From an uncultured Elusimicrobium sp. (GTDB taxonomy: Bacteria > Elusimicrobiota > Elusimicrobia > Elusimicrobiales > Elusimicrobiaceae): a stretch of DNA of 34,014 nucleotides. Where the stretch lies: positions 1 through 34,014 of the forward strand of contig CACXER010000022.1 of assembly GCA_902766765.1 (NCBI GenBank), read 5' to 3'. The notes beneath the pieces were generated by a model. That model was not told the origin of the DNA. It ran no database searches and saw only the letters and a list, made by a program, of their open reading frames with translations. Made by a program: the position numbers and the translations under genes. This document shows, piece by piece, positions 11,394 to 32,261 of this stretch. How positions within the stretch are numbered: position 1 is the first letter of the stretch; every line of letters begins with the position of its first letter.

Positions 11394-11924
11394 ATGAATA
11401 AACAAGGTTTTACATTGATGGAATTACTTATCACGGTGCTGATTTTGGGCATTTTGACATCCGTGGCGGTGCCGCAATATACGCGCAGTTTGGAGCGCTC
11501 TCGTGCAACGGAAGCCATGACCGGGCTCAAGGCATTAAATGATGCCGTCTATGCGTACGCAGCCGAGCGGGACTCTTCCGAAATGTGCCCGAAGTCTTTT
11601 CGCAAATTGTTGATTAGTTTGCCGGGCGAGATTAGCGAGGATGGTTCTACTATTACTACGAAAGATTTTGTGTACACATTGGGCGGGGCTACGGGTGCCC
11701 TGGTGCCGGGGACGGATTGCCCGGGAGTGCTGGCTACCCGACGCGGGGGGAGTAAATATGACTATATTATTTGGAACCCTTACGTGGTAGGTACTGCCGG
11801 GAAGGGCACGTCTCTGGCGTGCACGAGTCCGGGGGGAGTGGCTACCAGTTTGGCGATATGTGAGTCGCTTAACCTGTATACGGTCAATACCTCTCCGTAT
11901 GCGTCACCGGAGAACCCGGAATAG
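11394..11924 (+). CDS. Type IV pilin-like protein 1
   Basis: A 176-residue protein with a class III prepilin leader: MNKQG, then FTLMELLITVLILGILTSVA, with Glu at mature position 5 and a hydrophobic N-terminal helix. It continues with VPQYTRSLERSRATEAM, the usual amphipathic part of the helix. The globular C-terminal domain has several Cys (EMCPKS, TDCPGV, LACTS, AICES) and is not one I recognise. Such proteins are processed by a prepilin peptidase and act as major or minor pilins or pseudopilins. A strong AAGGAGC precedes the ATG. The function of this particular copy is unknown. Confidence 0.92.
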   Translation: MNKQGFTLMELLITVLILGILTSVAVPQYTRSLERSRATEAMTGLKALNDAVYAYAAERDSSEMCPKSFRKLLISLPGEISEDGSTITTKDFVYTLGGATGALVPGTDCPGVLATRRGGSKYDYIIWNPYVVGTAGKGTSLACTSPGGVATSLAICESLNLYTVNTSPYASPENPE

Positions 11925-16750: not shown

Positions 16751-17215
16751 ATGAAACAAGGTTTTACGTTAGTAGAAATGTTGGTCGTTGTCGTAATCGT
16801 TACCATTTTAGCGGTAGTTGCTATTCCGCAGTATCAAGCGTCCGTAGAGCGTTCCCGCACGGCGGAGGCCTTGTACAATGGGCGGGTTTTGTTGGATAGT
16901 ATGAATCGGGCGTTATCGCTTAGCCCCAACGATGTGCCCAAAACTAAACAATCGTTGGACGTTAAAATTGGCGGTGGACAATGGCGGGATGACAGTTCTT
17001 TTTATACCAAAGATTTTCGGTATGATATTTCGAACGGCTCTTATTTGCAAATTGAACGTATTGCCGGTGGAAATATCCTATATGTGCTATATATGTACAA
17101 TCGGTATGTCCCGGCGGATGACGGCCTGAGAGTATGCGTATGGCATTCCGATCTGGGCAAAACCGTGTGCGATATACTCTCCAACCAAGGGTTTATCGGA
17201 AAGTCCGGCGAATAA
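16751..17215 (+). CDS. Type IV pilin-like protein 2
   Basis: A 154-residue protein beginning MKQG, FTLVEMLVVVVIVTILAVVA, IPQYQASVERSRTAEAL: a short class III prepilin leader with Glu5 and a long hydrophobic helix. The C-terminal domain has two Cys (LRVCVWH and KTVCDIL) that could form the usual pilin disulfide loop. GGGAGG lies 6 bases before the ATG. It is a single-gene unit between the divergent kdsA operon and a terminator shared with the convergent dut. Specific function unknown. Confidence 0.92.
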   Translation: MKQGFTLVEMLVVVVIVTILAVVAIPQYQASVERSRTAEALYNGRVLLDSMNRALSLSPNDVPKTKQSLDVKIGGGQWRDDSSFYTKDFRYDISNGSYLQIERIAGGNILYVLYMYNRYVPADDGLRVCVWHSDLGKTVCDILSNQGFIGKSGE

Positions 17216-18859: not shown

Positions 18860-19825
18860 ATGAAGAAAATTCTTTTACTGCTTAGTTTGCTTGCGTGTGT
18901 TTGTAACTCCTGGGCACAGGAGGCCGACTCGCGCATTTTTACCCATCCGGGCCGGGAAACTTTTGTATATTTCCCTTCGCAAGAATTAGGTCCTACCAAT
19001 ACCGTTACTTTTTTCTTACCTGAAAAATCAGTACCGCTTACACAAAGTTATCCGGTCATTGTTGTGTTGGGGCTAGTGCCGAAACAAGCTCCGGAAATAG
19101 CGCAATTTCAGCAAGAGCATCGGGCGATTGTAGTGGGTATCAATTTTGAAGAAAAAGATTATGCCACACGGGCCACACAAATTGAACGGTTTTTAATGCG
19201 CGAATTGTTACCGTATGTGGACACGAATTATTTGACGAAAACCGGACCCGAAAACCGTATTTTGGCCGTGCAAGGGAAAAGTGCGGCACGCATTGCGTTG
19301 CACGTTACCCAAAACCCGAATTTGTTTGGAGGGGTGGCGCTATTTTCACCCGGGGATGTGTGGAACGATGTTGACGTCCCCAATGTGCGTACGCTGGTGG
19401 TGGGTACGCAACCGGAATTAGCCCTGGCCCAAGAGACATTGGAACAATATGGCAAAACGTACGGACCGGATTTTGCCTTACGTTACAATCGGGCAAACGA
19501 ATTATGGTTTCGCGGGATAGATGCCTCGTATTTGTGGGCGGATAAAGCACAAACGCAAGTGAAATATGCGCGGGCAGATGTGTCTTTAAATAAGGTCTCA
19601 CTTGCTCAGCCGCAAGATGTATTTTTACGGATCTGGGTGGTATTAGCGAATAATTCACTTTTCCATTATGTTCCCTCCCAATTGCGCATGAGTCCGCCGT
19701 ATTTGACTTGGGATCCTTTGCGCGGGGCATTACAAGCCGTTTCCGGGGCTGTTCCCGGAACAGTACGTGTGCGTAATGTTGTGGATAAACCGGCGTTTGC
19801 GGTGAAAGTTCGCTTGAAAAAATAA
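18860..19825 (+). CDS. Secreted alpha/beta-hydrolase (esterase D-like) protein, probably degenerate
   Basis: A 321-residue protein with a signal peptide (about 1-19, ending NSWAQ). The middle looks like a putative esterase/enterochelin esterase domain: SYPVIVVLGLVPKQ, RAIVVGINFEEKDYATRATQIERFLMRELLPYVDTNY, then RILAVQGKSAARIALHV and LFGGVALFSPGDVWND. In active relatives the nucleophile sits in G-x-S-x-G at this place, as in xGxSMGG; here it reads G-K-S-A-A, so the elbow is altered. The last 100 residues contain beta-rich sequence. It may be a non-catalytic member or have changed specificity. It stands alone, upstream of the DnaA-box region. Confidence 0.7.
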   Translation: MKKILLLLSLLACVCNSWAQEADSRIFTHPGRETFVYFPSQELGPTNTVTFFLPEKSVPLTQSYPVIVVLGLVPKQAPEIAQFQQEHRAIVVGINFEEKDYATRATQIERFLMRELLPYVDTNYLTKTGPENRILAVQGKSAARIALHVTQNPNLFGGVALFSPGDVWNDVDVPNVRTLVVGTQPELALAQETLEQYGKTYGPDFALRYNRANELWFRGIDASYLWADKAQTQVKYARADVSLNKVSLAQPQDVFLRIWVVLANNSLFHYVPSQLRMSPPYLTWDPLRGALQAVSGAVPGTVRVRNVVDKPAFAVKVRLKK

Positions 19826-19980
19826 GCAGAAAGGCATTTTAGTGGCTTTTTAGGCAAAAAAAGAGCGACTTGTCAACAGTTTTTTCAAAAGTGTGAAAAA
19901 ATAGGGGTAATTTTTAGTGATTGGGAATCCTCGTCGATAAAAATAGCATTTTTCGTTATTTTTTAGCGGAAAATCAAAAG

Positions 19981-19989
19981 TTATCCACA
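19981..19989 (+). promoter_or_regulatory. DnaA box 1
   Basis: Perfect TTATCCACA, 20 bases start to start from box 2. Confidence 0.75.
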
Positions 19990-20000
19990 GAAAAATTGAG

Positions 20001-20009
20001 TTATCCACA
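20001..20009 (+). promoter_or_regulatory. DnaA box 2
   Basis: Perfect TTATCCACA in the same orientation as box 1, about two helical turns away. Confidence 0.75.
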
Positions 20010-20084
20010 CCCCAATATCCAAAAACCGTTTTTTCATTTTAAAGTGCTATCTCAAAACACGAAAAATGTAGAGTAAAACGGGGG

Positions 20085-20093
20085 TTATCCACA
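20085..20093 (+). promoter_or_regulatory. DnaA box 3
   Basis: Perfect TTATCCACA, 11 bases start to start from box 4, so both lie on the same face of the helix. Confidence 0.75.
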
Positions 20094-20095
20094 AG

Positions 20096-20104
20096 TTATC
20101 CACA
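20096..20104 (+). promoter_or_regulatory. DnaA box 4
   Basis: Perfect TTATCCACA, forming an inverted pair with box 5. Confidence 0.75.
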
Positions 20105-20107
20105 GTA

Positions 20108-20116
20108 TGTGGATAA
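20108..20116 (-). promoter_or_regulatory. DnaA box 5
   Basis: TGTGGATAA on the plus strand, a perfect box on the minus strand, 3 bases from box 4. Confidence 0.75.
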
Positions 20117-20157
20117 CTGGGGACAAATAGATTTTTAAGTTAGTAGGTATATTCTTT

Positions 20158-20166
20158 TGCTATAAT
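20158..20166 (+). promoter_or_regulatory. Extended -10 promoter of the OmpA-like lipoprotein gene
   Basis: A TGC-TATAAT extended -10 (hexamer 20161-20166) gives a leader of about 13 bases carrying AGGAGG. It lies directly beside the DnaA-box region, so DnaA could influence it. Confidence 0.65.
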
Positions 20167-20185: not shown

Positions 20186-20716
20186 ATGAAAACAAAACTT
20201 TTTTTACTTTTAGGTGTTGCCTTGATGTTGTCAGCGTGTGCTTCCGGTCAAACGGAAGAGGATGAACTGACCCGTCCGAAAAAAACTGACCCGGCCATTC
20301 AGGAACAGCAAATCCGCAATGAACATCTCTCGGCCCAGACGGCTAAACAAATGAGTAAGAGCCGAAAAATCCCTTCCATTACGTACGAATTTGATTCTAT
20401 CCGCCCGCCGGAAGAATCGTATCCGCTTTTGGATAAAATCGTAACGGTGTTACAAGATGACCCTACCTTACATTTAGTGGTAGAAGGTCACGCCGATATT
20501 GTGGGGTCGGATGAATATAACTATTGGCTCGCCGGCGCGCGTGCCGCGGCGATGAAATCGTATTTAGTTAGCCGCGGTATCAATGCCGAACGCATCCGCA
20601 TTCACTCGTACGGCAAGGACCGCCCGATTACGTTAGATACTTCGTCCGAAGGAAGAAAGGCCAACCGCCGCGTGGAATTTAAACTCACTACGCGCACTTG
20701 GCAAGCCATTTATTAG
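20186..20716 (+). CDS. Pal-like OmpA-domain lipoprotein
   Basis: The start at 20186 (176 residues) is fixed by AGGAGG 7 bases upstream; an in-frame ATG at 20165 overlaps the promoter. The lipoprotein signal ends MLSAC (Cys18). A charged linker is followed by a C-terminal OmpA/Pal peptidoglycan-binding domain: ITYEFDSIRP near 62, VVEGHADIVGSDEYN near 99, LAGARAAAMKSYLVSRGI near 117, RIRIHSYGKDRP near 139 and RKANRRVEF near 160. The domain binds diaminopimelate-type peptidoglycan and tethers the outer membrane. No Tol genes are nearby, so calling it true Pal would go beyond the sequence. Confidence 0.9.
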   Translation: MKTKLFLLLGVALMLSACASGQTEEDELTRPKKTDPAIQEQQIRNEHLSAQTAKQMSKSRKIPSITYEFDSIRPPEESYPLLDKIVTVLQDDPTLHLVVEGHADIVGSDEYNYWLAGARAAAMKSYLVSRGINAERIRIHSYGKDRPITLDTSSEGRKANRRVEFKLTTRTWQAIY

Positions 20717-20865: not shown

Positions 20866-21405
20866 ATGAAAAATGAAATGTGGTGCAAATTAGGCGGGTT
20901 TACACTGATAGAATTATTAGTAGTCGTCCTTATTATCGGTATATTGGCGGCGGTGGCTCTGCCGCAGTATGAAAAAGCGGTGTGGAAGTCACGCTATTCA
21001 CAATTAGTGACGGTGGCTAGTTCTCTTGCTCAAGCCGCGGAAGTATATTACTTGGCTAACGGACAAAATCCGACGGACATGGAAGAATTATCTGTGGAGA
21101 TGAATTGTGAGAGATCTCTGGGCGGGCGTTGGAAATGTGGCGACTTTTATTGTGATCTAAGGGCCAATAAAACTATAACCTGTATGAACGAGGAGTTTTT
21201 GAAAAACGGGTATGGAATAAGTATAAATTTTGATAGCTCTGTTGCAGGACAACGGTATTGTATAGCTATGGCCGGGGAAGGAAATGATAAATATAATCAA
21301 TTTTGTAAAACTCAAACACACCAAGCCAGTCATGCGTTTGCGTATGGTATTTTAGATGGAAGCGGAACCTTGTCATACAAATCTACTAATTGGTATGCTT
21401 ATTGA
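20866..21405 (+). CDS. Type IV pilin-like protein 3
   Basis: A 179-residue prepilin-like protein. The leader is MKNEMWCKLGG followed by FTLIELLVVVLIIGILAAVALPQYEKAVWKSR, with Glu5. It is the closest of the five in this window to the classic PilE/PulG consensus. The C-terminal domain has several Cys (MNCERS, KCGDFYCDL, TCMNEE, RYCIAM, FCKTQ), enough for more than one disulfide. AGAGGG precedes the ATG. Single-gene unit with its own promoter and terminator. Role within a pilus or secretion system unknown. Confidence 0.93.
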   Translation: MKNEMWCKLGGFTLIELLVVVLIIGILAAVALPQYEKAVWKSRYSQLVTVASSLAQAAEVYYLANGQNPTDMEELSVEMNCERSLGGRWKCGDFYCDLRANKTITCMNEEFLKNGYGISINFDSSVAGQRYCIAMAGEGNDKYNQFCKTQTHQASHAFAYGILDGSGTLSYKSTNWYAY

Positions 21406-31143: not shown

Positions 31144-31617
31144 TTATCCTCTCATCAGGAATTCCGCATCGCTGATGGCGGTGTCACCCATGTTTTCACA
31201 CAACCAACTGTATTTGGCCCGATTGACAACTTCACAGGTGAGGGTATCTTTGCCGTAGGTGTCGTGGTTGTAATAAAAATTAAAACAATAGTCTTTATTG
31301 GGCAAACGGCAGGCAGATACCCTAGAGTTTGAAAAAATATAAACAAATTTATCCAACGTAAATGACTGAGTCGTGTCGGAAGAAGCATCAAAAATAGAGA
31401 TGTCTAATCCTTGCAATTTCATGGGAGGGACAGAATTGGCCGCTTTATAGCGTTTGGCTGAATCAAAAATAGAGCGTAACGTGACAAGCGCCGTTGTGGC
31501 GTCGGCCCGAGCAATGGAACGATTGTATTGAGGCAAAGCAATGGACGTTAAAATACCGATAATTAGTACAACGGCTAACAGTTCCGTTAGCGTAAAACCC
31601 GATTTGTTTGTTTTCAT
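31144..31617 (-). CDS. Type IV pilin-like protein 4
   Basis: A 157-residue prepilin-like protein: leader MKTNKSG, then FTLTELLAVVLIIGILTSIALPQYNRSIARADATTAL, with Glu5. The C-terminal half has Cys in ACRLPNKDYCFNF, LTCEVV and WLCENMG, suggesting disulfide-stabilised loops. AGGAG lies about 8 bases before the ATG on the minus strand. Its promoter faces that of the divergent pilin 5. Function unknown beyond class. Confidence 0.93.
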   Translation of the reverse strand: MKTNKSGFTLTELLAVVLIIGILTSIALPQYNRSIARADATTALVTLRSIFDSAKRYKAANSVPPMKLQGLDISIFDASSDTTQSFTLDKFVYIFSNSRVSACRLPNKDYCFNFYYNHDTYGKDTLTCEVVNRAKYSWLCENMGDTAISDAEFLMRG

Positions 31618-31666: not shown

Positions 31667-31684
31667 ATGATTTGTGATTTATTC

Positions 31685-31712
31685 TTGCAAAACCGTTAAA
31701 AAAGGATATAAT
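31685..31712 (+). promoter_or_regulatory. Promoter of pilin 5
   Basis: TTGCAA (31685-31690), a 16-base spacer and a perfect TATAAT (31707-31712) give a leader of about 27 bases. It is back to back with the pilin 4 promoter; 18 bases separate the two -35 hexamers. Confidence 0.75.
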
Positions 31713-31745
31713 AAAAATAGACATTTTTGGAGAAAAGGGGTTTTT

Positions 31746-32261
31746 ATGCAAACATCTAAACGCATTTTTAACGCAGGTTTTACGCTGACAGAACTTATGG
31801 CGGTGGTTATTATCATATCCATTTTAGCCGTATTAGGAACGGGTTCTTACCGCAAGGCGGTGGAACGCAGTCGCTTGTCTGACGGGCTGATAGCAGCTTC
31901 TACCGTGATGGAGGCCGTCAACCGCTATCATGCAGACAAATATCCGGCCGCCGCTGCGGGATATCCGAAATATAATCAGTTGGATATCTCTTTTCCGAAC
32001 GAAACCGCGTGTACGACCGCTTCCGATTATTGTAAAAAAACAAAATATTTTGAGATCACTATCGGTAATAACGGCTTTGTAGATGCCCAACGTATGAAAG
32101 GTGCTAGCGCGGGAGATTACACGGTTCGCGTATATTCCGATACATTTAGTGCTACCAAGGGCCACGCTACGGAGTGCCGTGGTGCCAATGACGGCGGAAG
32201 AGATTTATGCGTTTCGGCCGGATACGGTACGTGCGATTCCGAAAGAGTGTGCGTTAAATAG
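31746..32261 (+). CDS. Type IV pilin-like protein 5
   Basis: A 171-residue prepilin-like protein. The ATG at 31746 is chosen because the open frame upstream covers the promoter; a purine-rich GGAGAAAAGGGG precedes it. The leader MQTSKRIFNAG is followed by FTLTELMAVVIIISILAVLGTGSYRKAVERSR, with Glu5. The usual PQY after the helix is replaced by GTGSY. Cys pairs in the C-terminal half (TACTTASDYCKK, TECRGA, DLCVSAGYGTCDSERVCVK) include a Cys-dense C-terminus unlike the other four. Divergent from pilin 4, followed by a terminator and then nadB. Confidence 0.92.
   Translation: MQTSKRIFNAGFTLTELMAVVIIISILAVLGTGSYRKAVERSRLSDGLIAASTVMEAVNRYHADKYPAAAAGYPKYNQLDISFPNETACTTASDYCKKTKYFEITIGNNGFVDAQRMKGASAGDYTVRVYSDTFSATKGHATECRGANDGGRDLCVSAGYGTCDSERVCVK

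What the first reader, a model, noticed from the sequence alone, without database searches (positions are those of the whole stretch)
19826..20160. Cluster of five perfect DnaA boxes: candidate replication origin away from dnaA
Seen: TTATCCACA occurs four times on the plus strand (19981, 20001, 20085, 20096) and once on the minus strand (20108-20116) within 136 bases. It lies in a gene-free AT-rich gap of about 335 bases, with spacings near whole helical turns and one inverted pair. TAGTAG at 20141 next to the last boxes recalls DnaA-trio elements. Known: such dense perfect boxes mark oriC or DnaA-titration loci. Inference: this is the chromosomal origin or a DnaA-regulatory locus, placed between an esterase-like gene and a Pal-like gene rather than near dnaA. 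Gene direction does not clearly switch here, which is a point against an origin.
Basis: partly seen in the sequence, partly recalled or inferred. Interest (0 to 1): 0.8.

Follow-up and report, generated by a model that had tools for sequence, protein, structure and literature searches.

The report
Conserved non-origin DnaA-binding cluster
In a family of gut bacteria (Elusimicrobiota), a fixed set of six binding sites for the replication-starting protein DnaA sits about halfway along a chromosome arm beside a cell-envelope gene; it is not where replication starts, but looks like a remote control point that ties up DnaA and may switch that gene.

Summary
The origin reading is wrong. In relatives the GC-skew switch lies at dnaA-dnaN, which has its own DnaA boxes, while this locus sits mid-replichore in constant skew: about 0.40 of the arm in a closed 1.64-Mb genome, 0.55 in a two-contig genome. 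Box geometry is nearly invariant (20, ~84, 11, 12 bp between starts). A profile finds the element in 65 of 67 own-genus genomes, all three of a second genus and, weaker, about half of a third, nearly always directly upstream of a pal-like lipoprotein gene. The strict core triple is absent from 98 of 100 genera searched in the phylum. Sister lineages instead keep a tandem DnaA double box at the dnaA promoter, which this lineage lacks. Best reading: a non-origin DnaA-binding control locus, a DnaA sink that may also regulate pal. It is the same kind of thing as E. coli datA/DARS and B. subtilis DnaA-box clusters, but not shown to be a member of any. DnaA binding and function are inferred.

The parts
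19780..19788 (-). DnaA box 0, perfect, inside the 3' end of the esterase-like gene
   Evidence: at -193 to -206 from box 1 in relatives; 33 of 35 elements with VD[KN] there spell T-GTG-GAT-AA against 4.4% expected
19932..19936 (.). conserved CGWCG motif about 49-51 bp upstream of box 1, role unknown
   Evidence: 47 of 58 elements at -49 to -51
19981..19989 (+). DnaA box 1
   Evidence: box 1 to box 2 is 20 bp in all but one element
20001..20009 (+). DnaA box 2
20067..20075 (+). conserved TGTAGAGTA motif about 18 bp upstream of box 3, role unknown
   Evidence: TAGAGT in 37 of 58 elements
20085..20093 (+). DnaA box 3, first of the tandem double box
   Evidence: 82-86 or 74 bp from box 2
20096..20104 (+). 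DnaA box 4, 2 bp after box 3
   Evidence: 11 bp start to start from box 3
20108..20116 (-). DnaA box 5, inverted, facing box 4
   Evidence: 12 bp start to start from box 4 with one exception
20158..20166 (+). extended -10 promoter element TGCTATAAT of the pal-like gene
   Evidence: TGnTATAAT found in 46 of 52 elements at 39, 45-51, 59-61 or 72 bp from box 5
20186..20716 (+). pal-like lipoprotein gene (OmpA domain)
   Evidence: PF00691 E 1.8e-17; Pal_lipo TIGR02802 E 7e-23 but below that model's cut-off; directly downstream of the cluster in nearly all relatives
18860..19825 (+). esterase-like gene carrying box 0
   Evidence: PF00756 E 5e-9; upstream in most relatives, lost in some

Best explanation
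This is a DnaA-binding control locus, not an origin. Six perfect boxes over 337 bp in fixed geometry would let DnaA assemble cooperatively: on the tandem pair 3-4 facing inverted box 5, on the pair 1-2, and possibly with box 0 by looping. The complex most likely does two linked things. It holds DnaA away from oriC, in a dose that doubles when the fork passes mid-replichore. It also sits just upstream of the pal-like promoter, so expression of this envelope lipoprotein may follow DnaA availability. Shown: the sites, their geometry, their conservation, the chromosomal position and the exclusion as origin. Inferred: DnaA binding, sequestration of DnaA, and control of pal.
For: Only cluster of perfect boxes in the draft. 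Near-invariant geometry while the spacer diverges. Found by profile in 65 of 67 own-genus genomes and 3 of 3 of a second genus, syntenic with pal. Box 0 conserved at nucleotide level inside coding sequence. Boxes 3-4 are a tandem pair 2 bp apart, the arrangement that E. coli DnaA prefers in vivo (PMC11317965). Mid-replichore in constant skew. Box-to-promoter distances cluster about one helical turn apart. Lineages with this cluster lack the double box that others keep at the dnaA promoter.
Against: No binding data for any member of this phylum. In G081 a pilin gene separates the intact cluster from pal, and in the closed genome and one relative the promoter distance does not fit the phasing, so control of pal is not secure. 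The phasing test is weak (p about 0.01-0.02 on distances thinned by hand). Genome counts are not independent events. Two conserved motifs that are not DnaA boxes (CGWCG, TGTAGAGTA) are unexplained.
Confidence: 0.6

Rival explanations
1. Pure transcriptional operator: DnaA bound at the boxes activates or represses the pal-like promoter, like DnaA at B. subtilis sda, with no meaningful effect on replication.
For: Constant partner is pal even where the esterase gene is lost. Extended -10 at phased distances. B. subtilis DnaA activates sda and represses several genes through box arrays (PMC4447404).
Against: Cluster stays intact in G081 although a pilin gene separates it from pal. Promoter distance does not fit in the closed genome and one relative. 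Box 0, about 200 bp further upstream in coding sequence, is under selection.
Confidence: 0.22
2. A locus that changes DnaA's nucleotide state, as datA (ATP hydrolysis) or DARS (ADP release) do, with pal next to it by inertia of gene order.
For: Boxes 3-4-5 have the same order and orientation as the DARS core read in E. coli K-12. Mid-replichore position recalls conserved oriC distances of E. coli control loci (PMC4585315). Box pairs on one strand separated by a long spacer recall datA boxes 2 and 3 (PMC5742627).
Against: Spacing differs from DARS (11 and 12 bp against 12 and 14 bp start to start). No IHF or Fis site was looked for. No biochemistry.
Confidence: 0.13
3. Chromosomal replication origin placed away from dnaA.
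For: Dense perfect boxes in an AT-rich gap.
Against: Skew constant across the locus and switching at dnaA instead. dnaA-dnaN gap has its own boxes. TAGTAG not conserved.
Confidence: 0.02
4. Sites for a protein other than DnaA that happens to read TTATCCACA-like words.
For: Extra conserved motifs (CGWCG, TGTAGAGTA) show that other proteins may bind here too.
Against: The word and the 2-bp tandem spacing are those of DnaA (PMC11317965). Genus dnaA genes keep the domain IV recognition helix (RDHSTVVHA in the reading frame of L059), and near-consensus boxes fill the dnaA-dnaN region.
Confidence: 0.03

Closest known systems
E. coli DARS1/DARS2 (DnaA-reactivating sequences)
   Same: Core of three boxes, two in tandem and one inverted and facing them; non-coding locus far from oriC
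   Different: Start-to-start spacing 11 and 12 bp here against 12 and 14 bp there; extra pair 1-2 and box 0; ADP-release activity untested; IHF/Fis sites not sought
E. coli datA
   Same: High-affinity boxes in the same direction separated by a long spacer
   Different: Spacer about 84 bp here against 162 bp between starts there; mid-replichore rather than near oriC; ATP hydrolysis untested
B. subtilis DnaA-box clusters outside oriC, including the sda promoter array
   Same: Box arrays away from oriC, several in front of genes that DnaA regulates; deletion of six causes early initiation (PMC4447404, PMC5295017, PMC13220808)
   Different: Here a single cluster of perfect boxes, upstream of a pal-like gene and mid-replichore; no sequence relation tested
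Double DnaA boxes of the E. coli DnaA regulon
   Same: Tandem boxes 2 or 3 bp apart (PMC11317965)
   Different: Here part of a larger array of six boxes
dnaA-promoter double box of sister lineages (family f2, genera g12 and g13)
   Same: Tandem boxes with 11-bp start spacing, some with a facing third box
   Different: Lies upstream of dnaA in the opposite orientation; in the own genus that site is reduced to a single, often degenerate box, or none

Membership tests
Chromosomal origin (oriC) | GC-skew switch from negative to positive at the locus | tested here: not met
   Constant skew at the locus in G015, G020, G050 and G083; switch at dnaA
Chromosomal origin (oriC) | DNA unwinding element or DnaA-trio next to the boxes | tested here: not met
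   TAGTAG present only in the window among 58 elements; AT-rich DNA present, unwinding not testable
DARS | Three-box core, boxes II and III in tandem and box I opposite | tested here: met
   Boxes 3, 4 (+) and 5 (-), compared with K-12 DARS1 and DARS2
DARS | Core spacing shared by DARS1 and DARS2 | tested here: not met
   11 and 12 bp start to start here against 12 and 14 bp
DARS | Stimulates ADP release from DnaA | not testable with these tools
   Needs purified DnaA
datA | Same-direction high-affinity boxes around a single IHF site | tested here: inconclusive
   Same-direction pairs 1-2 and 3-4 with a spacer of about 75 bp; IHF site not tested
[quoted passage not shown]
   Needs biochemistry
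Non-origin DnaA-box cluster (general kind) | Several DnaA boxes clustered beyond chance away from oriC | tested here: met
Non-origin DnaA-box cluster (general kind) | Bound by DnaA in vivo; affects initiation or transcription | not testable with these tools
   Needs ChIP-seq and mutants

The most novel reading that the evidence does not exclude
A datA/DARS-type initiation control locus arose independently within Elusimicrobiaceae. It took over the high-affinity DnaA site once kept at the dnaA promoter, times re-initiation by its mid-replichore duplication, and ties an envelope lipoprotein to the replication cycle.
Probability: 0.22. Interest if true: 0.75.

Novelty: new variant of a known kind. 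Interest (0 to 1): 0.58.

Why it matters
Remote loci that control DnaA are well characterised in few organisms, chiefly E. coli and B. subtilis. A remote locus of strict geometry, kept throughout a genus and found in related genera of an unrelated phylum, would suggest that such control evolves repeatedly. It also gives a natural comparison, in which the high-affinity double box is at dnaA in some lineages and at pal in others. The box embedded in coding sequence shows that the DNA site itself is under selection.

Tried and rejected
Origin: rejected by skew. DnaA-trio: not conserved. Known RNA in the gap: only sub-threshold Rfam matches. Box 0 as a by-product of protein sequence: rejected by codon choice. 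The DnaA-family hit in the own draft (contig C90) is not the initiator: domain IV is not found and it follows a long Pro/Gln-rich region; a gene with DnaA domain IV is absent from this 87%-complete draft, so position was judged in relatives. Generic promoter and terminator scan of the gap found nothing. Okumura 2012 (PMC3245932) is not held and is used through reviews. Literature searches showed no paper whose title or abstract start describes a DnaA cluster at pal or in Elusimicrobiota; this is a limited library, so absence is weak evidence.

Full report
Observation. Five perfect TTATCCACA boxes lie at 19981, 20001, 20085, 20096 (+) and 20108 (-). They sit in a 33% GC gap between an esterase-like gene (PF00756) and a lipoprotein gene with an OmpA domain (PF00691), here called pal-like because it matches Pal_lipo below that model's cut-off. 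The draft genome has 33 perfect boxes against 10 for the reversed control pattern, and this is their only cluster. Chance is excluded.

A sixth box. A perfect inverted box at 19780 lies inside the esterase-like gene. Among 35 elements whose protein reads VD[KN] at that place, 33 spell T-GTG-GAT-AA, although the preceding residue varies (F, G, S, H, V, T, I, A, N) and K and N alternate. Codon usage predicts 4.4%. The genomes are related, so the nominal binomial value overstates the case, but the constraint is clear. The element therefore spans about 337 bp (19780-20116).

Not the origin. In same-genus genome G015 the cluster is at 363.5 kb of a 699-kb contig with positive skew in every stretch sampled. 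On G015 contig C3 the skew changes from negative to positive at dnaA (55 kb), and likewise in G020 (contig C6, about 453 kb), where the cluster is on another contig of constant skew. G050 has two contigs (915,655 and 700,113 bp). Skew switches at dnaA (C1, 223 kb) and, in the other direction, around 120 kb on C2. Joining the contigs by skew gives arms of about 812 and 803 kb (inference), with the cluster (C2, 484 kb) about 439 kb from dnaA, or 0.55 of its arm. G083 is one contig of 1,643,562 bp, which I take to be Elusimicrobium minutum Pei191 from its length (own knowledge, not tested). Its dnaA is at the start of the contig, skew turns negative around 0.81-0.85 Mb, and the cluster is at 338.7 kb, about 0.40 of the arm. 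On these maps the two clusters are on opposite arms relative to dnaA direction, but in all four genomes the strand of boxes 1-4 matches the direction of replication. The dnaA-dnaN gap itself carries several perfect or near-perfect boxes.

Conservation and geometry. Start-to-start distances are 20 bp (box 1 to 2; one exception of 21), 82-86 or 74 bp (2 to 3), 11 bp (3 to 4) and, with one exception, 12 bp (4 to 5), while the spacer diverges. A sequence-only profile made from 32 copies finds the element in 65 of 67 own-genus genomes (E <= 2.3e-12) and in all three of a second genus (E <= 7e-12); the own-genus copies include those used to build it. In a third genus, hits that are mostly weaker lie directly upstream of pal in ten of nineteen genomes. 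The strict core triple occurs in 33 of 341 phylum genomes, in 2 of 100 genera, and the reversed control in none. The upstream esterase is sometimes lost; the pal-like gene almost never. In G081 a pilin gene has come between the intact cluster and pal.

Relation to the promoter. An extended -10 (TGnTATAAT) follows in 46 of 52 elements at 39, 45-51, 59-61 or 72 bp from box 5. A Pal tree suggests several independent shifts of about ten bp. A Rayleigh test on distances thinned by hand gives p about 0.01-0.02. I count this as suggestive only; the closed genome and one relative do not fit.

Relation to the dnaA promoter. Genomes of the sister family, and one other genus of the own family (g13), carry tandem boxes 11 bp apart at about -63/-52 (or -60/-49) of dnaA, some with a facing third box; a further genus (g12) has two near-consensus boxes face to face there. 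In the own genus, the second genus and the one third-genus genome examined, this site is a single, often degenerate box, or absent. So the high-affinity double box is found at dnaA in some lineages and at pal in others. That is a correlation; whether one replaced the other is inference.

Mechanism. E. coli DnaA binds in vivo mainly to tandem boxes 2-3 bp apart (PMC11317965), and boxes 3-4 are such a pair. I propose a cooperative DnaA complex acting as a sink for DnaA and touching the pal promoter. Comparisons with datA, DARS and B. subtilis clusters rest on PMC5742627, PMC4585315, PMC13220808, PMC4447404 and PMC5295017 and on E. coli K-12 sequence read here. The core shares box order and orientation with DARS but not its spacing, so I do not file it as DARS. 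No defining biochemical feature of any of these systems could be tested.

Limits. DnaA binding is inferred. All genomes but one are incomplete assemblies, skew was sampled in pieces, and the species are related, so counts of genomes are not counts of independent events.

Noticed in passing
L001 3-2534 (own genome G000:C90): A protein of at least 844 aa with a DnaA-like AAA+ domain, no DnaA domain IV found, and a long Pro/Gln-rich stretch in front.
   Followed up: partly
window 19932-19936 and 20067-20075: Two conserved motifs that are not DnaA boxes: CGWCG about 50 bp upstream of box 1 (47 of 58 elements) and TGTAGAGTA about 18 bp upstream of box 3 (TAGAGT in 37 of 58); unexplained.
   Followed up: partly
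window 11394-11924, 16751-17215, 20866-21405, 31144-31617, 31674-32261: Several scattered pilin-like genes with N-terminal methylation motifs; one such gene lies between the cluster and pal in G081.
   Followed up: no
L298 110-151 (G026:C27:110-151): A sister-family genome has four DnaA-box-like 9-mers in tandem with 11-bp spacing and no dnaA or pal match on the 2.1-kb piece read.
   Followed up: no
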